This document shows, in pieces, positions 11,816 through 32,157 of a stretch of 32,157 nt of DNA. The stretch is from a virus, in IMG/VR virus record IMGVR_UViG_3300005466_000055, positions 1 to 32,157 of that record. The stretch is one strand, 5' to 3'. Both the position numbers and the translations under genes were made by a program. The first letter of the stretch is position 1, and each line of letters starts with the position of its first letter. The notes beneath the pieces were generated by a model. The model was given only the letters and a program-made list of their open reading frames with translations, ran no database searches and was not told the origin of the DNA.

Positions 11816-12042
11816 TCACAGCCGATCCGAAAGTTCTCGAGGCGCGCCTGCGGTCCGTTCTTGCCCTTGATGGCCCATTCTGCAAAGAGGCCGCTCGAGA
11901 TTGCATTGAGCGCGAGCGTATAGCTGGCGCTTTCTGTGCCCGGCTGCCCGGCATTACTGGGCACTTCGCAAATTGGTATGGCGCCGTGTTCGGAGAGGAT
12001 CTGTCGGGCAAGCCCTGGAAGCCGAAGGAGAAAAAGAAGTGA
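11812..12042 (+). CDS. Hypothetical protein, 76 residues, in replication module
   Basis: Unrecognised. GTG at 11812 shares GTGA with the gene before, and its stop shares GTGA with the gene after. The end is strongly basic (KPWKPKEKKK). The pattern ALDGPFCKEAARDCIERERIAGAFCARL is helical with two Cys. Proteins of this type often accompany phage replication genes. Confidence 0.6.
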   Translation: MITADPKVLEARLRSVLALDGPFCKEAARDCIERERIAGAFCARLPGITGHFANWYGAVFGEDLSGKPWKPKEKKK

Positions 12043-12752
12043 GCAAGATCAACCTCAACGACATGACCATTTGCAGCGATGACGGCGGCTTCAGCGACAA
12101 ACCGCAAAAAGACTACGGCTATCGATCTGATCTGGTCGATGTTCACTTCAAGAACATCAAGCGCGAGCTGATTCGATTCATTACGAACGCCGAACACATT
12201 CTCGGCTGCGTTGCGTGGCTGACTGATCCAGACATCCTCGATGCGTTGAGTTCGGTGTCGTGTTCAATCTTTGTTCAGAAGGAAGACTTCCTGCGCCCTG
12301 ATGTGGGTAGCGACACTGGATTTAAGAAAGGGCTGCGCGCTGCATACGCACGCCTTAGCAACAAGCATCTAGTCAGGTTCATGGCGCCTGGCGTTCTAAG
12401 CGGAATGTCTTACTGCGGCGATCCTGAGATTGATGCTGTGCGCGTAGTTGGGAATCACAATCGCAGCAAGCATCCTGCATTTCCGAGGATGCATAACAAG
12501 TTCCTTGTGGCGTGCCGAATCGAGGCTGGCCAAAAATTCAACGGAGAATCTGCGCTCAAGGCATATGCCGCGTGGACTGGATCATTCAACTTTACGAAAA
12601 ACGCAGGCATGAGTTTTGAGAATGCCGTCGTTCTTCGTAACCCGGAGATTGCTGCGCAATTCGCAAATGAGTGGAGCCAGATCGGCGCGTTCTCTGAACC
12701 GCTTAATTGGAACAGCGACTGGTGCGCACCAGAGTGGCGGATTGGCTCATGA
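12039..12752 (+). CDS. Phospholipase D-like nuclease-family protein
   Basis: A 237-residue protein from GTG 12039 (GTGA overlap). The central IKRELIRFITNAEHILGCVAWL is the typical start of PLD domains (a strand near an early helix, as in Nuc). The catalytic HKD motif appears as MHNKFLVAC, with Cys where Asp is usual (H-x-K-x4-D). It is followed by WTGSFNFTKNAGMSFENAVV, the G-S-x-N-F-T...N region of PLD nucleases. One motif is present, so a dimer would form the active site. It could be a phage nuclease or a nucleic-acid-binding relative. It is translationally joined to the primase-helicase gene. Confidence 0.72.
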   Translation: MSKINLNDMTICSDDGGFSDKPQKDYGYRSDLVDVHFKNIKRELIRFITNAEHILGCVAWLTDPDILDALSSVSCSIFVQKEDFLRPDVGSDTGFKKGLRAAYARLSNKHLVRFMAPGVLSGMSYCGDPEIDAVRVVGNHNRSKHPAFPRMHNKFLVACRIEAGQKFNGESALKAYAAWTGSFNFTKNAGMSFENAVVLRNPEIAAQFANEWSQIGAFSEPLNWNSDWCAPEWRIGS

Positions 12753-17845: not shown

Positions 17846-20052
17846 TGGCCGCGAAGAAGAAAACCGAAGACGCCAAGGCGCTGCTGCTCGAGGCGCGCAC
17901 GCGCTACCAGCAGTGCGTGCAGTTCGAGGATGCGAATCGCCGGCACTACCGTGAGGACATGCGCTTCATCCACGTGCCTGGCGAGCAGTGGGATGCGACG
18001 TCTAAGTCTGAGCGCGGCAAAGACCGGCCGATGTACGAGTTCAACCACACGCGCGTGACGGCCAAGAACGTCATCAACGAGATGCGCGCGAACCGGCCGA
18101 CAGCAAAGTTCCGCGCGACCGAGGACAGCGACAAGCCGATCGCCGAGGCCCGCGAGGGCATTGCCAAGAACATCTGCAGTCAGTCGGATTTCGATTCCAT
18201 CCGCGACTACGCAGCCGAGCATCAGGTCGGTGGCGGCTTCGCTGCGTGGCGCGTGGATACGAAGTACGTGTCGGACGACTCGTTCGATCAGGACATCGTG
18301 CTCGCGCCGTTCCACGACCCACTGTGCGTCTATGCGGATTATGCGTGCCAGGACCCGTTGAAGCGCGATGCAAACTATTGGTTCATCGCGACGCAGATCA
18401 CGCGTGCTGCCTACGAGCAGAAGTACGGCAACAAGGAAGTGGTCGAGTTCACGCGCGATGAGACCGTTGACCTCGATGAGGTGAACGAGGACGAGCGCGT
18501 CTGGGTGGCGGAGTACTGGAAGAAGGTCCCGCAAGAGCGCCACCTGTGCCAGCTCTCGGACGGCACGGTCATCGACAAGCTCGATGAGAAGAACGCCATC
18601 CCTGATGGCGTGACGGTCGTCAACGAGCGCAGATTCATGGGCACGAAGATCGTGCAGTACGTGATCTCCGACGTGTCGATCCTCGAGGGGCCGAACGACT
18701 GGGCGGGTAGCGACTTCCCGTTCGTGATCATCTACGGCGACTACGTCGTGGTTGAGGGCAAGCCGCAGTGGTGCGGTGTTGCGCGGTACATGAAGGACCC
18801 GCAGCGCGCTCACAACTGGGCGATGACGAGCGTGTTCGAGTCGATTGCCAAGGCTGGCGAGGAGTTCACGTGGGTCACGGCCAAACAGGCCGAGAACCAG
18901 GCACAGCACTGGGCTGATGCGGACCGCAAGAACTTGAAGTACCGGCTGTACAACGCAGACCCGCAGTCAGGTGGCCCGCCGCAGCGCTCTGGCGAGCCGC
19001 AGGTGCCGGTTGCGCTGATCCAGGCGGCGCAGATGTCAACGGATGAGATGAAAGCATCCTCCGGCATCTTCGATGCGTCGATCGGCAACCAGTCGAACGA
19101 GACGAGTGGCCGCGCGATTGCGAACCGCGCAGCGCAGGGTCGGATCGCGACATTCAACTTCCAGGACAACATGCTGAAAGGTGTCCGTCGCACCTACGAG
19201 ATCCTGAACAACCTGATCCCGAAGATCTACGACACGCGTCGCTCGATCCGCATTCTGGGCGAGGACGGCACTGAGAAGTTCGTGCAGATCAACGATGGGG
19301 TGAACGACCTCAACCGCGGTAAGTACGACCTCACGATCACGGCCGGCCCCTCGTTCGCTACGCAGCGTATGGAGGCGGCAGAGGCGTACGTGGGCTTGGC
19401 GCAAGGCAATCCGCAGGTGATGGCATCGGCGGGTGATCTGATCTTCAAGTCGATGGACCTGCCGTTCAGTGATCAGATCGCAGAGCGCTTGCGCCTGACG
19501 CTCCCGCCGCCGATTCAAGCTGCGATCAACAAGGACAAGCCGATCCCGCCCGAGGCGCAGGCCGCACTCATGCAAGCCGAACAGGCGATGCAGCAGGTGC
19601 AGATGCAGGGTCAGATGGTCCAGCAGGCAGCCGAAGAGGCGCAGCAGCAGAAGGGCGAGGCCGACAAGGCTGTGAACGATGTGAAGCTGCAAGTGGCGCA
19701 GCTGAAGATCCAGGAAGCGCACCTCGCAGTCGATGTCGCGAACTTCAAGGCACTCGTTGCGCAAGAGCAGGCAAAGGCCGCTCAGGCAAGCGCTGGCAAA
19801 GACAGCGAGGTAGAGAAGGCAACGCTCACCGCTCAGTTGCAGGAAGCGTTGGGCGCGATCCAGCAGGACGCATCCGCTCTGTTCCAGCAGTACGCATCCC
19901 AGCTCGCGCAGATGCATGGCCAGGCTCTAGCTACCGCGCAGCCTCAGGTCGTCGTTGCGAATCAGCCGAAGCGTAAGCGCGCAGTATCCCGCCGTGTGAA
20001 CGGCGAACTCCATACCGAAATCGTCGAGATACCGGAAGAGGCGCTTCAGTGA
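17845..20052 (+). CDS. P22-type portal protein
   Basis: A 735-residue protein of the P22 portal family (gp1-like): the N-terminal part has YRED...HVPGEQWD, the central part NETSGRAIANRAAQGRIATFNFQDNM (split here: SNETSGRAIANRAAQGRIAT and FNFQDNM), followed by KGVRRTYEILNNLI, the P22 portal clip and stem region. The ring of portal subunits forms the DNA gate. The last ~200 residues are Gln/Ala-rich coiled coil (MQQVQMQGQMVQQAAEEAQQ), the barrel-like C-terminus. ATG 17845 forms TGATG with terL. The length agrees with P22 gp1 (about 725 residues). Confidence 0.93.
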   Translation: MAAKKKTEDAKALLLEARTRYQQCVQFEDANRRHYREDMRFIHVPGEQWDATSKSERGKDRPMYEFNHTRVTAKNVINEMRANRPTAKFRATEDSDKPIAEAREGIAKNICSQSDFDSIRDYAAEHQVGGGFAAWRVDTKYVSDDSFDQDIVLAPFHDPLCVYADYACQDPLKRDANYWFIATQITRAAYEQKYGNKEVVEFTRDETVDLDEVNEDERVWVAEYWKKVPQERHLCQLSDGTVIDKLDEKNAIPDGVTVVNERRFMGTKIVQYVISDVSILEGPNDWAGSDFPFVIIYGDYVVVEGKPQWCGVARYMKDPQRAHNWAMTSVFESIAKAGEEFTWVTAKQAENQAQHWADADRKNLKYRLYNADPQSGGPPQRSGEPQVPVALIQAAQMSTDEMKASSGIFDASIGNQSNETSGRAIANRAAQGRIATFNFQDNMLKGVRRTYEILNNLIPKIYDTRRSIRILGEDGTEKFVQINDGVNDLNRGKYDLTITAGPSFATQRMEAAEAYVGLAQGNPQVMASAGDLIFKSMDLPFSDQIAERLRLTLPPPIQAAINKDKPIPPEAQAALMQAEQAMQQVQMQGQMVQQAAEEAQQQKGEADKAVNDVKLQVAQLKIQEAHLAVDVANFKALVAQEQAKAAQASAGKDSEVEKATLTAQLQEALGAIQQDASALFQQYASQLAQMHGQALATAQPQVVVANQPKRKRAVSRRVNGELHTEIVEIPEEALQ

Positions 20053-20636
20053 CGCTCGCGCTTCAACTTGGCAATCTCTGCCAGCGCCATTTGCCACTCG
20101 TGGTAGTAGGTGCCGTAGCCGTGGCAGCTGCCTGGCTGCTGCTTGCCTTTGAGGTAAATGCGCAGATTTTTGGCGTCGTTGTTTTGCTTGTTGCCATCCA
20201 TGTGGTCAACGCATTCGTTAGAGCGAAGCGGCCTGCCAATCGCCATGGCCATCACGTATCGGTGCTCCATCACTTTCTTGCACCCTGTCGTGTACATGCC
20301 CTGAAAAATCGGCATGTGCGCTTCTGGCACAACGTACGGACTCAAAACAACGTATCCCTGGTTGTTGATGTGCCGTCCAGTCCCGGTGGTTTTCAGCGTT
20401 TTCATACGCCTTTCGCGCATCTTGGCCGCAACGCAACTCGTGCAGTGCCCAGTGAAGCTCTCGCCGCGCTTGATGTACTGACGCAACGCGGAAACCGTCA
20501 TCCAGCGCTCCCTGCTGCAAGCGGGGCACTTGATCGTGGCGCACAACGTTTTGTGCCCGTACATGAACCGCAATCTGTAAGTCGTGCTAACGGCTGGATG
20601 CGGAGGAATTGGTTTTCTGTTGAGCGGTCTGGCCAT
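20046..20636 (-). CDS. HNH endonuclease, reverse to the late operon
   Basis: A 196-residue protein from ATG 20636. The first half holds zinc-like CPACSRERW...CTSC; the HNH core is CKKVMEHRYVMAMAIGRP and VDHMDGNKQNNDAKNLRI. The gene lies against the reading direction of the virion genes, between portal and the next gene, and its stop overlaps the portal 3' end by 7 bases. A TACAAT -10 lies about 11 bases before the ATG and CTGACA further upstream, so a near-leaderless message from its own promoter is possible. It is a free-standing homing gene. Confidence 0.85.
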   Translation of the reverse strand: MARPLNRKPIPPHPAVSTTYRLRFMYGHKTLCATIKCPACSRERWMTVSALRQYIKRGESFTGHCTSCVAAKMRERRMKTLKTTGTGRHINNQGYVVLSPYVVPEAHMPIFQGMYTTGCKKVMEHRYVMAMAIGRPLRSNECVDHMDGNKQNNDAKNLRIYLKGKQQPGSCHGYGTYYHEWQMALAEIAKLKRERH

Positions 20637-20666
20637 AAACAGATTGTACAACACTAGAAGGAACAC

Positions 20667-21540: not shown

Positions 21541-23115
21541 GTGGCGATCAGCGCGGGCGTCACAGTCCCGGCGACCGCATCGGGTAACACGTGCACGACC
21601 GCGACGCGGACCAGCGCTGCGAGCGGCTCGACGTTCGTGGTGTTCTGCCAAGCTGACGCAACGCCGAACACGCCGACCGACAACAAAGGCAATACCTACA
21701 CCGCAGTGACGACGGCTGTAACGAACAGCTCGATCGTCAGTCGAATGTACTACTGCCAGAACGGCACGGGCGGTAGCGGCCATACCTGGACGTTCACGAC
21801 GCCGTTCTCAGCCGACCTGTCGATGTACGTGCTCGAGATCCTGGGCGGCCTCACGACCGGCATCCTCGACGCGGTCAATCAGGTGCTCGACTCATCGTCA
21901 CCCTTTACGGTGACGTCCGCAGCTACCACGCAGGCTGCGGAGCTTGCGGTAGCAGCGATGTCTGGCAATTCGGGCACGAACCCGGCGACGCATGCGGAAT
22001 CGACGGGCTACACGATTCGGTCAGAAGTCACCACGGGCGGACCGAACTGGACCGGCGCGATAGCCAGTAAGGTGCTCTCGGCAACCGGCGCACAAACTCC
22101 ATCCTTCACGGAAAACGGCGGCACCACGGCTGGCGTCCACATTGCGACCTTCAAGGAAGCAAGTGGCGGTGGTGGAGCGCTGACAGGCTCGAGCACGCTT
22201 ACATTCTCCCAGTCAGGAACTCTGACTGGTGCAGGAGCGCTGAGCGGCAGCACGACTGTCACGTTCAGCCAGTCTGGCACGTTGACCGGCTCTGGCGCGC
22301 TGAGTGGATCGAGCACAGTCACATTCTCGCCTACCAGCACACTGACTGGCGCCGGCGCTCTGGTCGGCAGTGCGACGTTCAGATTCTCTCCCTCTGGCGC
22401 AATTGCAGGGGCCGGGGCGCTTGCTGGCTCTACGACGGTCACATTTTCACCGACCGGAACGCTGACGGACTCAGCCTCTGGTGGCCTGACGGGCGCAGCC
22501 ACACTGACATTCACGCCCACAGCGACGCTCACCGGCAGCGGTGCGCTGTCGGGCTCGACGACGCTTACGTTCGCACAGAGCGGCGCTCTCACGGGCGCTG
22601 GTGCGCTTGCTGGCGCGTCCACCATCGCATTCACGCCGTCCGGCACGCTTGCCGATGGCGGCAACGCGCTCATTGGCGCAACGACCATCACGTTCACCGT
22701 TACGGGCGCGCTGAGTGGCACTGGCGGCCAGCAAGCCTCGGGCGGCTCCCCTAGCTACGCCTACTACAACGACCTTGACGCAGCCCGCCAGCGTCGCCTG
22801 GCGCGTCAGCGCCGCGAGCGTGAGCGGGAGAGCGATGAGCAGGCGATCCAGGACGAGATCAGCCGCAAGGTCGCCAAGGCGATCTACGCGCAGGAACGCA
22901 TCGACGCTGAGCGCGCCGATCTCTCGCGCATCCAGACGCTCGCTGATTCGCTGATGCGACAGCGCACCGAACTACCCAGACCTGTGCTCGCGGCAGTCAT
23001 GAAAGCCCACGAGGAGCGCACTCACAACTCGCTCGCGCAGCTCGATCGACTAGTTGCACAGATGTTGGAGGAAGAGGAGGCCGTTGTAGCGGCGTTGTTG
23101 TTACTTGAAGACTGA
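21541..23115 (+). CDS. Fibre-like virion protein with nine tandem ~20-residue repeats and coiled-coil C-terminus
   Basis: A 524-residue protein starting at GTG 21541 (no separate RBS). Residues ~1-205 form a Ser/Thr-rich beta domain (STFVVFCQADATPN, NKGNTYTAV, GGSGHTWTF) like those seen in phage fibres. Residues ~208-395 are nine tandem repeats with the pattern G-x-G-A-L-x-G-S-x-T-x-T-F-S-x-x-G-T-L-T. Residues ~405-524 are charged coiled coil (RQRRLARQRRERERESDEQA...). The fold is probably an elongated beta helix or a string of beta modules tied by a coiled coil. It is extremely rich in Ser/Thr, hence a candidate for glycosylation by the enzyme encoded at 25372. Confidence 0.75.
   Translation: MAISAGVTVPATASGNTCTTATRTSAASGSTFVVFCQADATPNTPTDNKGNTYTAVTTAVTNSSIVSRMYYCQNGTGGSGHTWTFTTPFSADLSMYVLEILGGLTTGILDAVNQVLDSSSPFTVTSAATTQAAELAVAAMSGNSGTNPATHAESTGYTIRSEVTTGGPNWTGAIASKVLSATGAQTPSFTENGGTTAGVHIATFKEASGGGGALTGSSTLTFSQSGTLTGAGALSGSTTVTFSQSGTLTGSGALSGSSTVTFSPTSTLTGAGALVGSATFRFSPSGAIAGAGALAGSTTVTFSPTGTLTDSASGGLTGAATLTFTPTATLTGSGALSGSTTLTFAQSGALTGAGALAGASTIAFTPSGTLADGGNALIGATTITFTVTGALSGTGGQQASGGSPSYAYYNDLDAARQRRLARQRRERERESDEQAIQDEISRKVAKAIYAQERIDAERADLSRIQTLADSLMRQRTELPRPVLAAVMKAHEERTHNSLAQLDRLVAQMLEEEEAVVAALLLLED
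22167..22725 (+). repeat. Nine tandem ~60-base repeats encoding 20-residue units
   Basis: Units run roughly GAGALSGSTTVTFSQSGTLT with changes per copy; one copy carries the insert DSAS and one DGG. DNA identity between units is moderate, so the tandem array is old or selected. See the gene entry 21541-23115. Confidence 0.85.
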
Positions 23116-24055: not shown

Positions 24056-25324
24056 ATTGCAAACAACATTCTGACTAATACGATGATCACGCGGGAAGCA
24101 GCCCGCGTGCTCACTCAGCAAGGCACGTTCTTCTCGAACATCCGCAAGGACTATCGGGAAGAGTTCGCGAAGTCGGGCCTCAAGGCCGGCAACTCGATCA
24201 ACATGCGCCTGCCGAGCAAGTACACCGTCCGCACGTCCAAGACCTTCACGGGTCAGGACCATGTCGAACGCTCGACCCCGCTCGCCGTGCTGTCCCAGTA
24301 CGGCATCGACGTGTCGTTCTCGACCGCCGATCGCACGCTCTCGCTCGATGATTTCAGCAAACGAGTGCTGAAGCCTGCGATGGCGCAGCTCGGCAGCACG
24401 ATCGAATTCACGGCGCTTCAGGCCGCGTATCGCTCAGTGTGGAACGGCATCAACGCAACGACCAACACGGCGCTCACGTATCGCTACTTCCAGAAGGCTG
24501 GCCAGGCGCTTACGGACAACCTGGCGCCGGTCGGTGATCGCACCGCCGTCCTGAACCCGGCCTCGATGGTCGAGTTCCTGGATGCCACCAAGGGCCTGTT
24601 CGCTGCGCAGAGCAATCTGAACGAGCAGTTCCGCGAGGGCATGATGGGCCGCACGGGTGGCTTCGACGTAGGCGAGAACACGCTGCTGCCGACGCACACC
24701 ACGGGCTCGCTCGCGGGTTCGCCGCTTACGTTCAACACGGCGCTCGGCATCTCCACCACGACGAACTCGTGGGCCTCGACGACGGATCTGTCCATCACGG
24801 GCGCGACTTCGGCCACGACTGTGACGGCGGGCGACATCATCACGCTCTCGGGCGTGTTCAGTGTTCATCCGGAATCGCGTCAGAACACCGGCAAGCTGCA
24901 GCAGTTCGTTGTGCAGTCGGCCGTGACGCTGACGACCGCCGCGAGCACCTACACCGTGACGGTCAAGCCCGCGTTGATCTACGGCGTCGGTAACGCGTTC
25001 CAGAACTGCACGCTCTCGGGTGTTGCCAACACGTCGGGCCTCACGGTCACGCGTTTTGGTGCCGCCTCGACGGCGTTCGCGCAGGACTTGTTCTTCCACA
25101 AGGATGCGTTCGCCGCAGCCTTCGTCGATCTCGAGGACGTGTCCTCGTACGGCGCGAGCTGCACGCGAGTGCAGGCCGACAACATCTCGATGCGGTTCAT
25201 CCAGCAGTACAACGGGTCGAGCGATGACGTCATCGCCCGCTTCGACGTGCTGTGGGGCTTCGCACCGCTGTTGCCGGAACTCGCCGCTCGGCACATGACG
25301 ACTCAGAGCCTTCTGACCGTCTAA
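24056..25324 (+). CDS. P22-type major capsid (coat) protein, apparent ATT start
   Basis: The P22 coat family fold is indicated by ITREAARVL, RKDYREEFAKSGLKAGNSIN, YTVRTSKTF, GIDVSFSTADRTLSLDDFS and LKPAMAQLGSTIE. The usual frame would start at ATG 24083, but an ATT at 24056 gives M-A-N-N-I-L-T-N-T-M-I-T-R-E, the N-terminus expected for this family. AGGAG lies at 24041-24045, 10 bases before the ATT, and nothing precedes the ATG. No in-frame ATG, GTG or TTG lies upstream up to the stop at 24035. From ATT the length is 422 residues. A terminator directly after the gene ends most transcription. Confidence 0.9.
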   Translation: MANNILTNTMITREAARVLTQQGTFFSNIRKDYREEFAKSGLKAGNSINMRLPSKYTVRTSKTFTGQDHVERSTPLAVLSQYGIDVSFSTADRTLSLDDFSKRVLKPAMAQLGSTIEFTALQAAYRSVWNGINATTNTALTYRYFQKAGQALTDNLAPVGDRTAVLNPASMVEFLDATKGLFAAQSNLNEQFREGMMGRTGGFDVGENTLLPTHTTGSLAGSPLTFNTALGISTTTNSWASTTDLSITGATSATTVTAGDIITLSGVFSVHPESRQNTGKLQQFVVQSAVTLTTAASTYTVTVKPALIYGVGNAFQNCTLSGVANTSGLTVTRFGAASTAFAQDLFFHKDAFAAAFVDLEDVSSYGASCTRVQADNISMRFIQQYNGSSDDVIARFDVLWGFAPLLPELAARHMTTQSLLTV

Positions 25325-25329
25325 CAAAC

Positions 25330-25361
25330 AGGGCCAGGGACTTCACACCTGGCCCTTTCTT
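25330..25361 (+). terminator. Terminator after the coat gene
   Basis: Perfect 9-bp stem AGGGCCAGG (25330-25338) and CCTGGCCCT (25348-25356), loop GACTTCACA, followed by TTCTT. Placed between coat and the modification cassette, it should limit expression of the cassette relative to coat. Confidence 0.85.
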
Positions 25362-25371
25362 CAGGAGCACC

Positions 25372-26193
25372 ATGACGTTCAAACACAAGGTCAAAGAGAC
25401 GGCGCAAAAGCCAGAGAGAGTCATTCACCCCTACGTATGCACGCCTGCATACAACGGTCAGGTGGATAGCGACTTCGCTCAATCTCTTGCAGAGACCGCA
25501 TTCACTTGCCCGATGTTCGGCATCCAGATCACTGCTGGCGTGCTCGGTAACGTTGGGTTCATCGAGTTGGCCCGCAACATTTTCGTCAAGAAGTTCCTCG
25601 AAAACGAGGAGATGAAGGACTGCACGCACCTGTTCTTCATCGATAGCGATTTGAAATTCGAGTGGCGCGGCTTTATCGGCTTGCTGAAAGAGGATCTGCC
25701 GATCTGCGCTGGCGTCTATCGCCGGCGCCAGGAGCCTGAGGACTATCCGTTCCGCGCGGCCGAGAACCCCAACGGCGGCGGCCTGTGGTTCGAGAACGAT
25801 TGGCTGCAGTGTGATCGAGTCCCCACGGGATTCCTCTGCATCCGTCGCGACATCCTGGAAGAGATGGTCAAGGAGTGCGACCGCATTGAGATGCACGATC
25901 AGCCGGGCGGTGTGCCGTGGCTGTTCGGCTTGAAGTTTGAAGATACCGCAGCGGGCGGCAAGCGCCTGATCGGTGAGGACTACAGCTTCTGCGACAAGTA
26001 TGTCGCGAAGTACGGAAAGATGATCCCGGTGTGGTCGAACCTGACGTTCACGCACCACGGCTTCACGGGGAACTTCTATGAGTACCTTCTTCGCGAGAAG
26101 GAACGTGCAGACCGCGGCGAGAAATCCGCTATGGGCCTGCCATCTGAAGAAGCCCTGGCCAAGCAGAAAGCCTCCACGAGTGTGGCGGCATGA
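25372..26193 (+). CDS. GT-A-like glycosyltransferase
   Basis: A 273-residue protein. IHPYVCTPAYNGQVDSDFAQ begins the nucleotide-sugar fold. HLFFIDSDLKFEWRG contains D-S-D, the D-x-D motif that binds the sugar-nucleotide metal. ICAGVYRRRQEPEDYP and GEDYSFCDKY (E-D motif) agree with phage GT2-like enzymes. The substrate cannot be told. AGGAG precedes the ATG by 5-6 bases, right after the coat terminator. The stop overlaps the methyltransferase start by 4 bases (ATGA). It likely adds a sugar to virion protein, DNA or host surface carbohydrate. Confidence 0.8.
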   Translation: MTFKHKVKETAQKPERVIHPYVCTPAYNGQVDSDFAQSLAETAFTCPMFGIQITAGVLGNVGFIELARNIFVKKFLENEEMKDCTHLFFIDSDLKFEWRGFIGLLKEDLPICAGVYRRRQEPEDYPFRAAENPNGGGLWFENDWLQCDRVPTGFLCIRRDILEEMVKECDRIEMHDQPGGVPWLFGLKFEDTAAGGKRLIGEDYSFCDKYVAKYGKMIPVWSNLTFTHHGFTGNFYEYLLREKERADRGEKSAMGLPSEEALAKQKASTSVAA

Positions 26194-26726
26194 ACGCCGT
26201 TCTTAAGGAAGCGGAATACCGCGAGCTGCTGTTAGGCAGCGGCAACAATCCGAAGAAGGAAATCACGTTCAAGGAAGTGCCGCAGGACTGGCAGAACCTG
26301 ACCAAGCTCGACATTGACCCGGACTGCAAGCCTGATGTCATCCACGACCTGAACGTCCTGCCGTATCCGTTCCCGGATAACTCGTTTAACGAGATCCACG
26401 CCTATGACGTGCTCGAGCACACGGGGCAGCAGGGCGACTGGCGCTTCTTCTTCGCCCAGTTCGACGAGCTGTGGCGGATCTTGAAGCCGGGCGGCTTCAT
26501 CTGTGGCGCGTGCCCGATGTGGGATAGCCCGTGGAGTTGGAGTGATCCAGGCCATAGCCGCGTGCTGTCGAAGCTCTCGCTGATCTTCCTTGATCGCCGG
26601 AACTACGCCGACATCGGCAAGACGCCGATGACCGACTACCGCCACATCTACAAGGGCGACTTCGAGGTGTGCGCGACGACCGAGAACGAGCACAAGTGGG
26701 GCTTTGTTTTGAAGGCGGTCAAGTAA
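26190..26726 (+). CDS. Class I SAM-dependent methyltransferase
   Basis: A 178-residue Rossmann methyltransferase: motif I LLLGSGNN (residues ~14-21; LDxGxG variant), motif II LDIDPDCKPDVIHDL, PFPDNSFNEIHAYDVLEHTG (motif IV region), LWRILKPGGFICGACPMW (motif VI). It resembles the methyltransferase_11 type acting on small molecules or sugars. Positioned between the glycosyltransferase and radical SAM genes; together they could build a modified glycan or small molecule. Confidence 0.85.
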   Translation: MNAVLKEAEYRELLLGSGNNPKKEITFKEVPQDWQNLTKLDIDPDCKPDVIHDLNVLPYPFPDNSFNEIHAYDVLEHTGQQGDWRFFFAQFDELWRILKPGGFICGACPMWDSPWSWSDPGHSRVLSKLSLIFLDRRNYADIGKTPMTDYRHIYKGDFEVCATTENEHKWGFVLKAVK

Positions 26727-27560
26727 GTGCTCGAAGCCTTCCGCCAACACCACCTGGAGTACCCGAACGAGGTGTCGGTGGAGACGCTTGCGCTGTGCAA
26801 CGCGCGCTGCACGTTCTGCCCGTATCCGACGATGGAGCGCAAGGGCACGAAGATGTCCGACGAGCTGTTGGACAAGATCGTGACGGAGATCATCTCGTGG
26901 CGCCGGCCGATGTTCTTCTCGCCGTTCAAGGTCAACGAACCCCTGCTCGATGCCCGCACGTTGCCGTTGTGCGAGCGGATCAACCGTGAGGCGCCGTGGA
27001 TCGTGCTGCGCCTGTTCACGAACGGTTCTGCGCTCACTCCCGCGAAGATTGAGGAGATCGCAAAGCTCAAGAACGTGACGCACCTGTGGGTGTCGTTGAA
27101 CTCGCATATCCCTGAGGAATACGAGCGGGTGATGGGCCTGCGGTTCGATCTGACCGCCAAGCGCTTGGACTATCTGCACGCGCAGGACTTTCCTCACCCT
27201 GTCGTGCTTTCGACGGTCGGCTATCCGAACGAGGACTTCCGCCGCTATTGCTTCGAGCGGTGGCCGAAGTTCGAGTCCCTGGCGCTCAAGCGCGACGCGT
27301 GGCTGGGCCAGATCGAGCCGCAGGCTGGCGCAGTGCCTGACTCGCCGTGCGCGCGTTGGTTCGAGCTTTCCATCACGGCGACTGGCGAGACCGCGCGTTG
27401 CTGCATGGACGGCGAAGGCAAGTACGGGTTCGGCAACGTTAACGAGCACTCGCTCTACGACATCTACAACCAGTCCGAGCTTCGCTCGTGGCGCGAAGGA
27501 CTGGTTAGCCGGAAGACCGTGTCTGTCTGCGACACCTGCACTTATGGGAGCGTGCAATGA
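26727..27560 (+). CDS. Radical SAM enzyme with SPASM-like C-terminal domain
   Basis: A 277-residue protein. CNARCTFCPYP (C-x3-C-x2-C) binds the [4Fe-4S] cluster and AdoMet. TNGSAL and WVSLNSHIPEEYERVMG are TIM-barrel elements of radical SAM enzymes. The C-terminal part has CARWFELSITATGE, CCMDGEGKYGFGNV and VCDTCTYG, the SPASM layout with auxiliary cluster cysteines. It could perform a radical change on a peptide, sugar or cofactor. GTG 26727 lies directly after the previous stop, with AAGGCGG in the 3' end of the previous gene. The stop forms ATGA with the gp4-like gene, so all four genes are coupled. Confidence 0.88.
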   Translation: MLEAFRQHHLEYPNEVSVETLALCNARCTFCPYPTMERKGTKMSDELLDKIVTEIISWRRPMFFSPFKVNEPLLDARTLPLCERINREAPWIVLRLFTNGSALTPAKIEEIAKLKNVTHLWVSLNSHIPEEYERVMGLRFDLTAKRLDYLHAQDFPHPVVLSTVGYPNEDFRRYCFERWPKFESLALKRDAWLGQIEPQAGAVPDSPCARWFELSITATGETARCCMDGEGKYGFGNVNEHSLYDIYNQSELRSWREGLVSRKTVSVCDTCTYGSVQ

Positions 27561-27970
27561 TCGTTCTCGAACTCATCACCGGCTCACTGCGCTCGATCGG
27601 CATCATCGGCGAGACGCAAAACCCATCTGCTGAGCAGGGGCAGGCGGCGACCACGCGGCTCAATGACCTGATGTTCCAGTGGCAGGAGAAGGGCGTCGAG
27701 CTTGGCTGGAACCAGAAGGACGCAGCCGGCGACCCCATCGCGCTCCCGTCTGGGTTGTTGGGCGGTATCAAGGCGCAGCTTGCCGAGTTGCTGGCCAACG
27801 ACTACGGAGTCGATGCGCCGCCATTAGTGCTGCGAGAGGCTGATGACTCGCGCACGATGCTCAACCGTCAGGCGCTGCAGGCGGCGTTTGGCCGGCCTAA
27901 CTTGCGCTCACTGCCTCTTGGCGAGTCGAGTGCTGGACGCTTTGACATCACGACCGGGACGGTGCGATGA
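27557..27970 (+). CDS. P22 gp4-like tail accessory / head completion protein
   Basis: A 137-residue protein. The N-terminus (ITGSLRSIGIIGETQNPSAE, ATTRLNDLMFQWQEKGVEL) and the middle (GLLGGIKAQLAELLANDYG) match the P22 gp4 family, whose members form a ring under the portal. It extends the head-tail connector, and P22 gp4 also has a lysozyme-like activity (not evident here). ATGA overlap with the radical SAM gene. Confidence 0.85.
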   Translation: MIVLELITGSLRSIGIIGETQNPSAEQGQAATTRLNDLMFQWQEKGVELGWNQKDAAGDPIALPSGLLGGIKAQLAELLANDYGVDAPPLVLREADDSRTMLNRQALQAAFGRPNLRSLPLGESSAGRFDITTGTVR

Positions 27971-29367
27971 CCTCAAGGTCGTTACCGCTCGAGTCTTACC
28001 AGCTAGCTTCGCGGCCGGCATCGGGATCGCTCCTGATGAACTGCTATGCAGAGCAGTTGCCTGAGGACGCGAAGACGCCGTTCCTCGTGCAGCGCACGGC
28101 AGGGATTTCCACCCTGCAGTCGATCGGCAACGGGCCGATTCACGGACTGAATTCTGCGTTCGGCAACCTTGGGATCGTCAGCGGCACTAACTTCTTTCAG
28201 ATCGGCTCTGCGCTGGGCGGCGCCGTGGATTACGGCAGCGTTGGCACGATCGCTTCGACCGGCATCGACATGGAGAGCAACGACCGCTACACGGTCGTCG
28301 TCAACCAGCCGAACGCGTACGCCTTTGACAACAGCGCGAAGACGCTCACGCAGATCACTGACCCTGAGTTCACCTCGCGAGGCGCCAGCGATGTTGAGTT
28401 CTTGGACAACTGGCTGCTCTTTCTGCAGCCGGATAGCGGCGTATTTTTCGGAGCCGACCTTGGGTCGGCGACTTCCTTCGACGGACTGAACTTCGCGACG
28501 GCCGAAGCATCGCCCGACAACCTGGTTGGGATGAAGGTCGATCACCGACAGGTGCTGCTGTTCGGCACGAAGACGATCGAGATCTGGGACAACACGGGTG
28601 TTTCAGGCTTCCCATTTGAGCGCGCCAGCAATGGCTTCGTTGAAATCGGATGCTTGTCAGGGCGCTCGATCGCCAAGCAAGACAATTCGGTTTTCTGGCT
28701 CGCAGATGACTACACCATTCGGCGCTTGAACGGCGCCACGCCGGTCCGGGTGTCCACCCATGCCGTAGAGCAAAGCATCGTTCGCTCAACAATCAGTGCC
28801 TGTCGCGCTTTCAGCTATTCGCAGGGTGGACACCTCTTCTATGTGATCACGTTCCCGGAAGTCACGTGGGTCTACGACTGCACGACGGGTAAGTGGCACA
28901 ACCGCAGCACCTACGGCTACGACTACTGGACAGCAGGCTGCCATGCGCAGGCGTTCGGACTTGAGGTGGTCGGCCACACGGACTCCGCCAGCATTGGAAA
29001 GTTAGACCCTGACGTATACACGGAATGGGGTGGTACGCAGCGCGCCGCTTGGCAGTATCAGACGATCTACGCCGAAGACCGGCGCGCGATCCACGACGCA
29101 ATCTCGATCATCATGGAGTACGGCGTTGGCATCGCGAGCGGGCAGGGCAGCGATCCTGAGCTGATGCTCGACTATTCAGATGACGGCGGCATTACGTGGG
29201 ATGCGCTGCCTAACAAGAAGATTGGGCCGCTAGGAAACTACCAGTATACGGTCGATTGGGAGCGTACTGGGTCTGCGAAGCAGCGCACCTATCGTGGCGC
29301 GATCTCTGATCCCGTGAAGGTGGCGATTACGGATACGACCGTTCGCGTTAGGGGGGCGCGCTGGTGA
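27967..29367 (+). CDS. P22 gp10-like packaged-DNA stabilisation protein
   Basis: A 466-residue beta-propeller-like tail hub protein. Features: PRTAGI-like LVQRTAGISTLQSIGNGPIH, GTNFFQIGSALGG, VVVNQPNAYAFD, EFLDNWLLFLQPDSGVFFG, LLFGTKTIEIWDNTG and WLADDYTIRRLNGATP, which follow the P22 gp10 family (repeated blade motifs). It plugs the connector after packaging. ATGA overlap with the gp4-like gene. Confidence 0.88.
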   Translation: MTSRSLPLESYQLASRPASGSLLMNCYAEQLPEDAKTPFLVQRTAGISTLQSIGNGPIHGLNSAFGNLGIVSGTNFFQIGSALGGAVDYGSVGTIASTGIDMESNDRYTVVVNQPNAYAFDNSAKTLTQITDPEFTSRGASDVEFLDNWLLFLQPDSGVFFGADLGSATSFDGLNFATAEASPDNLVGMKVDHRQVLLFGTKTIEIWDNTGVSGFPFERASNGFVEIGCLSGRSIAKQDNSVFWLADDYTIRRLNGATPVRVSTHAVEQSIVRSTISACRAFSYSQGGHLFYVITFPEVTWVYDCTTGKWHNRSTYGYDYWTAGCHAQAFGLEVVGHTDSASIGKLDPDVYTEWGGTQRAAWQYQTIYAEDRRAIHDAISIIMEYGVGIASGQGSDPELMLDYSDDGGITWDALPNKKIGPLGNYQYTVDWERTGSAKQRTYRGAISDPVKVAITDTTVRVRGARW

Positions 29368-31927: not shown

Positions 31928-32157
31928 GTGGACTGGCAGGACGATCAAGTCGTGTCGCAGGCGCCGGCAGCTTCGCCACAACAGGCGAATCAGCCTGCGT
32001 GGGCGCAGGACGAAGTAGTCGCGCCTGCCACGCAGACGCAGCAGACGCAGCAGACGCAGCAGACGCAGCAGACGCAGCAGACGCAGCAGACGCAGCAGAC
32101 GCAGCAGACGCAGCAGACGCAGCAGACGCAGCAGACGCAGCAGACGCAGCAGACGCA
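31928..32157 (+). CDS. N-terminus of a large virion protein, partial
   Basis: GTG 31928 follows the previous stop by one base. WQDDQVVSQ and WAQDEVVAP are near-duplicate motifs (W-x-x-D-x-V-V), known from N-termini of large internal or ejection proteins of phages. The frame then enters (TQQ)n encoded by the 9-bp repeat and runs off the window. The true length is unknown. Confidence 0.6.
   Translation, partial: MDWQDDQVVSQAPAASPQQANQPAWAQDEVVAPATQTQQTQQTQQTQQTQQTQQTQQTQQTQQTQQTQQTQQTQQT
32032..32157 (+). repeat. 14 perfect copies of a 9-bp repeat at the window end
   Basis: The sequence has exact period 9 (GCAGACGCA) from 32032 to the last base, 126 bases. In frame it encodes Thr-Gln-Gln repeats. 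The real copy number may be larger; see findings. Confidence 0.95.

What the first reader, a model, noticed from the sequence alone, without database searches (positions are those of the whole stretch)
25372..27560. Glycosyltransferase, methyltransferase and radical SAM/SPASM cassette inside the P22-type virion operon
Three enzyme genes sit between the coat gene and the gp4-like gene, an interval where phage P22 has only structural genes. They are joined to each other and to gp4 by 4-base or adjacent stop/start junctions, and a terminator in front separates them from coat. Motifs seen: DxD (FIDSD), LLLGSGNN, and CNARCTFC with C-terminal SPASM cysteines. The most likely use is modification of a virion protein or a host or phage glycan, made late in infection. 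The Ser/Thr-rich repeat protein (21541-23115), made from the same operon, is a candidate substrate. I know no described system with this order.
Basis: partly seen in the sequence, partly recalled or inferred. Interest (0 to 1): 0.82.

Follow-up and report, generated by a model that had tools for sequence, protein, structure and literature searches.

The report
Coat-linked sugar-modifying genes in phages
A family of uncultured P22-like phages carries, directly behind the coat gene, a conserved set of two or three enzyme genes (a sugar transferase, a methyltransferase and often a radical-SAM enzyme) that most likely builds a methylated sugar onto the virus particle, which would be an uncommon kind of decoration for a bacterial virus.

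Summary
The three genes are real and lie between a P22-type coat gene and a gp4 homologue, with 4-nt, 0-nt and 4-nt junctions. The arrangement is widespread: 46 other non-duplicate loci carry coat, glycosyltransferase (GT) and methyltransferase (MT), and 24 of them also the radical-SAM (rSAM) gene. In an MT search made without the coat, 49 of 80 loci had GT beside MT and a P22-type coat upstream; rSAM never occurred where a P22 coat could be excluded. Two complete public phages have MT-GT order or a GT::MT fusion at the same spot. The cassette follows the coat even when the tail genes are of another type.

The GT has no Pfam name; its predicted structure matches STIV A197 best, an archaeal-virus GT suspected of glycosylating the viral coat. 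The rSAM most resembles BtrN. Best reading: GT adds a sugar to a virion protein, probably the coat; MT methylates it; rSAM oxidises or epimerises it. No product has been shown. The Ser/Thr repeat protein is not the general substrate, DNA modification is disfavoured, and lysogen surface change is not excluded. I rate it a new variant of phage-encoded virion glycosylation.

The parts
24083..25324 (+). P22-type major coat protein (413 aa), the gene the cassette travels with
   Evidence: Pfam P22_CoatProtein 1.8e-32, phrog_283 1.8e-60
25330..25356 (+). terminator-like hairpin GGGCCAGG..CCUGGCCC with U-rich tail; probable attenuator after coat
   Evidence: fold z -3.4; similar hairpins in 9 relatives with the cassette and in most without it; not reported by the consensus scan
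25372..26193 (+). GT-A-fold glycosyltransferase, related to STIV A197; soluble, 273 aa
   Evidence: AF2 pLDDT 92; A197 (2c0n) Z 17.3, rmsd 2.4 over 161 aa; profile match to A197 E 2.2e-4; invariant DxD, D203, H228; phrog_1574
26190..26726 (+). class I SAM-dependent methyltransferase, 178 aa, start overlaps the GT stop
   Evidence: Methyltransf_11 above curated cut-off; conserved LLxGxGN and DEIHAYEVLEH motifs
26727..27560 (+). radical SAM protein with partial SPASM (Twitch-like) domain, 277 aa; C24xxxC28xxC31 and C208, C225, C226, C268, C271
   Evidence: Radical_SAM 7.8e-15, SPASM 4.1e-10; all these Cys invariant in 8 homologues; BtrN best by sequence profile (3.5e-10) and first by structure (Z 17.9)
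27557..27970 (+). gp4-like tail accessory factor / head-tail adaptor
   Evidence: P22_Tail-4 1.2e-5, phrog_637 1.5e-16
27967..29367 (+). gp10-like head closure protein
   Evidence: phrog_578 5.8e-99

Best explanation
A coat-linked, late-expressed glycan module. The soluble A197-type GT transfers a sugar from a host nucleotide-sugar onto a virion protein, most likely the coat protein made just upstream. The MT then methylates that sugar (capping or O-methylation). Where present, the rSAM enzyme, which resembles the sugar-acting enzymes BtrN and DesII and appears to carry one auxiliary cluster, oxidises or epimerises the sugar. Shown: gene order, its conservation with the coat, predicted folds and catalytic motifs. 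Inferred: the sugar product, the order of the steps, and the coat as acceptor.
For: Coat search: all 15 relatives with sequence behind coat have GT there, and all 11 with room have MT. MT search made without the coat: 49 of 80 loci have GT next to MT with a P22-type coat upstream; rSAM is in 26 of those and in none of the 21 loci where a P22 coat could be excluded. Tail swap: L027, L102 and L122 keep coat-GT-MT(-rSAM) in front of non-gp4/gp10 tail genes. Coat-GT pairwise distances correlate 0.87 over 47 loci, against 0.39 for coat-gp10 over 26. GT and MT are paired in three ways at this spot: GT-MT, MT-GT (MW202573.1) and a GT::MT fusion with a different MT type (MW202691.1). GT structure: A197 first, then collagen-hydroxylysine glycosyltransferases LH3 and COLGALT1 and mimivirus R699. 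The STIV coat is glycosylated and A197 is essential and suspected as its GT (PMC10551542). No transmembrane-grade segment in any of the three proteins. rSAM nearest to BtrN and DesII.
Against: No product or acceptor is shown. Adjacent genes co-inherit by linkage alone, so coat-GT correlation does not prove a coat substrate. The GT family also occurs in tail-fibre regions of cyanophages and in replication operons of alphaproteobacterial T4-like phages. Fold similarity does not give the acceptor, and peptide-acting rSAM enzymes (ChlB, SuiB, EpeE) score close to BtrN. No acceptor residue stands out in a coat comparison.
Confidence: 0.5

Rival explanations
1. Host-surface modification: the enzymes alter a cell-envelope glycan late in infection or in the lysogen, to block superinfection or free progeny.
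For: Phage GTs often do this (established knowledge, Gtr systems). Relatives are temperate: a coat-GT-MT-rSAM prophage lies in a Woeseia chromosome contig, and the window has an integrase-like gene. Relatives of the GT lie beside tail-fibre genes, a second GT and a nucleotide-sugar epimerase in a cyanophage.
Against: No membrane segment in the three proteins and no flippase or lipid-carrier GT in the cassette; position inside the head-tail operon rather than near an attachment site; fidelity to the coat gene across tail types.
Confidence: 0.22
2. The rSAM (and perhaps MT) act directly on a coat or other virion peptide, as in RiPP-type maturation, and the GT is a separate or parallel modification.
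For: The second-ranked rSAM structure is ChlB, and SuiB, EpeE/YydG and anaerobic sulfatase maturases score close behind. rSAM is separable: 19 of 47 cassette loci lack it.
Against: The protein is only a core plus a short C-terminal domain (277 aa), leaving little room for a peptide-recognition domain; BtrN ranks first by sequence and by re-aligned structure; beside MT, rSAM was never seen where a P22 coat could be excluded; GT-MT fusion and pairing favour one sugar pathway.
Confidence: 0.13
3. DNA hypermodification of the phage genome.
For: Members of the same GT family sit in replication operons of phiM12 and Cr30, where T4-like phages may carry DNA glucosyltransferases.
Against: No thymidylate synthase / dCMP hydroxymethylase family member in 10 cassette records, two of them complete circular genomes; late head operon; the MT shows no DNA-methyltransferase Pfam match.
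Confidence: 0.07

Closest known systems
STIV A197 glycosyltransferase (archaeal virus)
   Same: Best re-aligned structural match of the GT (Z 17.3 over 161 residues, 22% identity) and the only significant PDB sequence-profile match (2.2e-4); a soluble minimal GT-A enzyme in a virus with a glycosylated coat
   Different: Different virus realm and coat fold; the held papers describe no partner MT or rSAM; donor and acceptor unknown there too
Virion glycosylation of mycobacteriophages (Che8 and others; Freeman et al. 2023, known here only through PMC11256854 and own knowledge)
   Same: Phage-encoded GTs put glycans on capsid and tail proteins
   Different: HK97-type siphophages; in Maravista the GT genes lie near the end of the genome, not behind coat; I know of no rSAM partner
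BtrN / DesII radical SAM enzymes
   Same: Nearest solved structures of the rSAM; sugar-acting; BtrN carries one auxiliary cluster in a short Twitch domain (own knowledge)
   Different: Act on small antibiotic precursors; about 15-20% identity
P22-type head operon
   Same: portal, scaffold, coat, gp4 and gp10 homologues in P22 order
   Different: Eight cultured or annotated relatives at about 30% coat identity have only small hypothetical or tail genes behind coat

Membership tests
GT-A glycosyltransferase, A197-like | GT-A fold | tested here: met
   predicted model pLDDT 92; A197 Z 17.3; LH3 Z 15.1; many GT-A enzymes at Z 12 or more
GT-A glycosyltransferase, A197-like | DxD motif, catalytic acid and metal-binding His conserved | tested here: met
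   D91, D93, D203, H228 invariant in 32 sequences; assignment of D203 and H228 to catalysis is inference from GT-A enzymes
GT-A glycosyltransferase, A197-like | sugar transfer to viral coat | not testable with these tools
   needs mass spectrometry; not proven for A197 either
Class I SAM methyltransferase | Methyltransf_11 profile above curated cut-off | tested here: met
   23.3 against 21.2 bits; relatives score higher
Radical SAM superfamily | CxxxCxxC motif and core domain | tested here: met
   C24, C28, C31 invariant; Radical_SAM 7.8e-15
SPASM / Twitch auxiliary-cluster rSAM (BtrN-like) | auxiliary-cluster cysteines in the C-terminal domain | tested here: met
   SPASM profile 4.1e-10; C208, C225, C226, C268, C271 invariant in 8; cluster number itself not testable
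SPASM / Twitch auxiliary-cluster rSAM (BtrN-like) | sugar or aminocyclitol substrate | not testable with these tools
   BtrN and DesII are near, but peptide enzymes are close behind
Phage O-antigen conversion (Gtr) systems | membrane flippase and bactoprenol-linked GT with membrane segments | tested here: not met
   no segment with mean hydropathy above 1.4 over 19 residues in GT, MT or rSAM
Phage DNA hypermodification | thymidylate-synthase-family base hydroxymethylase | tested here: not met
   no PF00303 match in 10 cassette records, 2 of them complete circular genomes

The most novel reading that the evidence does not exclude
A whole lineage of P22-type phages makes a tailor-made, methylated and radical-SAM-edited sugar on its coat protein with a portable gene set that stays with the coat gene through tail exchange, using a glycosyltransferase family shared with an archaeal virus.
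Probability: 0.3. Interest if true: 0.85.

Novelty: new variant of a known kind. Interest (0 to 1): 0.62.

Why it matters
Phage-encoded glycosylation of phage particles has been shown in mycobacteriophages and, as far as I know, hardly anywhere else among phages. A conserved GT-MT-rSAM set fixed behind the coat gene would extend virion glycosylation to environmental P22-type phages, give a candidate acceptor for the unnamed family phrog_1574 that is common in marine phages, and link it to the long-unassigned A197 enzyme of an archaeal virus. It makes a testable prediction about a virion protein and adds a possible role for radical-SAM chemistry in phages.

Tried and rejected
Ser/Thr repeat protein as general substrate: rejected, only 5 of 46 other loci show a match and several have no room for the gene. 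Hairpin as part of the cassette: rejected, it also follows coat in relatives without the cassette. DNA similarity to known phages: none for 25372-27560. Coat residues specific to cassette phages: no Ser/Thr/Asn/Tyr stands out and no Ser-rich insert was found. Bacterial homologues of rSAM (36-46% identity, mostly beta- and alphaproteobacterial MAGs): the genes around them, read by eye, gave no common pathway. MT structure in PDB by profile: no useful match. Thymidylate-synthase family in cassette phages: none. Literature for this gene order: nothing found; the main mycobacteriophage paper is not held.

Full report
What is there. The window is a 32,157-base IMG/VR virus record carrying a P22-type head operon: large terminase, portal, a head or fibre protein, two further proteins including the repeat protein, scaffold, coat, then GT, MT and rSAM, then gp4 and gp10. 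The three enzyme genes are open, co-directional and joined by an ATGA overlap, an abutting TAA/GTG and a second ATGA overlap into gp4, read directly from the sequence. An early region with a Prim-Pol/VapE protein, an AAA ATPase, a single-strand-binding-like ORF and an integrase-like gene suggests a temperate phage.

Family evidence. rSAM and MT are secure by Pfam. GT is not named by Pfam or NCBIfam and belongs to phrog_1574, unknown function. A structure predicted from 32 homologues (pLDDT 92) has a GT-A fold. After re-alignment the nearest solved structure is A197 of Sulfolobus turreted icosahedral virus (Z 17.3, rmsd 2.4 over 161 residues, 22% identity), followed by the glycosyltransferase part of human lysyl hydroxylase LH3 (Z 15), mimivirus R699, Mnn9 and COLGALT1. 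Plain Foldseek ranks LH3 first. A sequence profile of the family also finds A197 (E 2.2e-4) as its only significant PDB match, and an independent annotator named a relative after A197. The STIV review states that A197 is essential, that the STIV coat is glycosylated, and that A197 may be its glycosyltransferase, donor and acceptor unproven (PMC10551542).

rSAM. The profile of eight homologues matches BtrN best (3.5e-10); the model (pLDDT 79) gives DesII and BtrN among the first by Foldseek and BtrN first by re-alignment (Z 17.9). Both act on sugar-like substrates (own knowledge). ChlB, viperins, SuiB and EpeE score only slightly lower, so the substrate class is a lean, not a result.

Conservation. 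A coat search of IMG/VR returned 16 loci; all 15 with sequence behind coat have GT there, and MT follows in all 11 with enough room. An MT-profile search that did not use coat returned 80 loci: 49 with GT adjacent and a P22-type coat upstream (26 of them with rSAM), 6 with GT and no P22 coat, 15 with MT alone and no P22 coat, and 10 cut by contig ends. rSAM was found beside MT only in the P22-coat loci or in loci cut before coat could be seen. After removal of duplicates, 47 loci including the window carry coat, GT and MT: 25 with rSAM, 19 without, 3 undecided. In public phage records, MW202573.1 has coat, a small ORF, MT, GT, a small ORF, tail adaptor, and MW202691.1 has a 425-residue GT::MT fusion, with a different kind of MT, between coat and gp4. 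GT-MT pairing thus shows up in three arrangements at one spot.

Link to coat. L027, L102 and L122 keep coat-GT-MT(-rSAM) although the genes behind belong to another tail type (phrog_2941, phrog_3287). Pairwise distances of coat and GT correlate 0.87 over 47 loci, against 0.39 for coat and gp10 over 26; in 14 loci with all genes, coat-GT 0.78, coat-MT 0.75, coat-portal 0.56, coat-gp10 0.06. Linkage alone can produce part of this. Eight cultured or annotated relatives with coat near 30% identity have no such genes.

Elsewhere. MT alone lies between an HK97-type prohead protease and major head protein in L124, and GT-MT lies behind a major head protein in L155. GT relatives also occur among tail-fibre genes with a nucleotide-sugar epimerase in a cyanophage, and in replication operons of phiM12 and Cr30. 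The family as a whole therefore need not have one acceptor.

Substrate. The repeat protein has matches in only 5 of 46 other cassette loci. Coat is the one virion gene constant across the cassette loci used here, though these loci were partly chosen for it. No coat residue or insert specific to cassette phages emerged. No thymidylate-synthase-family enzyme was found in ten cassette records, and no protein of the cassette has a membrane-grade segment.

Host. A Woeseia MAG contig (L045) carries coat-GT-MT-rSAM-gp4. The same genome has an integrase match on an 83,675-base contig, the length of the contig of L045, and that contig also holds, by my reading of the translations, core genes such as gyrA, aroA, serC and rpsA. 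This points to an integrated prophage in a gammaproteobacterium. The host of the window phage is unknown.

Verdict. Observation confirmed; virion-modification idea supported as the best of several; repeat-protein substrate not supported; new variant of phage-encoded virion glycosylation. The weakest link is the acceptor, which only chemistry can settle.

Noticed in passing
L004:6561-7142; L026:11756-12349: An extra ORF of about 190 aa, Ala/Lys-rich and (L004) without Pfam match, sits between MT and rSAM in two relatives; function unknown.
   Followed up: partly
L124:5413-10180: The same MT family occurs alone between an HK97-type prohead protease and the major head protein, far from any P22-type phage.
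   Followed up: partly
L167:4956-5933 (phiM12), L168:3986-4834 (Cr30): phrog_1574 GT genes lie inside T4-type replication operons of alphaproteobacterial phages; a possible DNA glycosyltransferase worth testing there.
   Followed up: no
L045 and L175-L177 (CAJWFK010000010.1): Apparent integrated P22-type prophage with the full cassette in a Woeseia genome, a route to a living host.
   Followed up: partly
L123:4206-5254: Two MT genes in tandem behind GT, the second one diverged.
   Followed up: partly
window 31928-32155: The window ends inside a Gln/Thr tandem repeat (QTQ units) at the start of a late gene; the contig probably broke at this repeat.
   Followed up: no
window 20046-20666, minus strand: A 206-aa ORF that looks by eye like an HNH endonuclease lies on the opposite strand between portal and the next head gene.
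   Followed up: no
window 11973-12752: ORF with a PLD-like nuclease domain (1.3e-6) overlapping the start of the Prim-Pol/VapE gene region.
   Followed up: no
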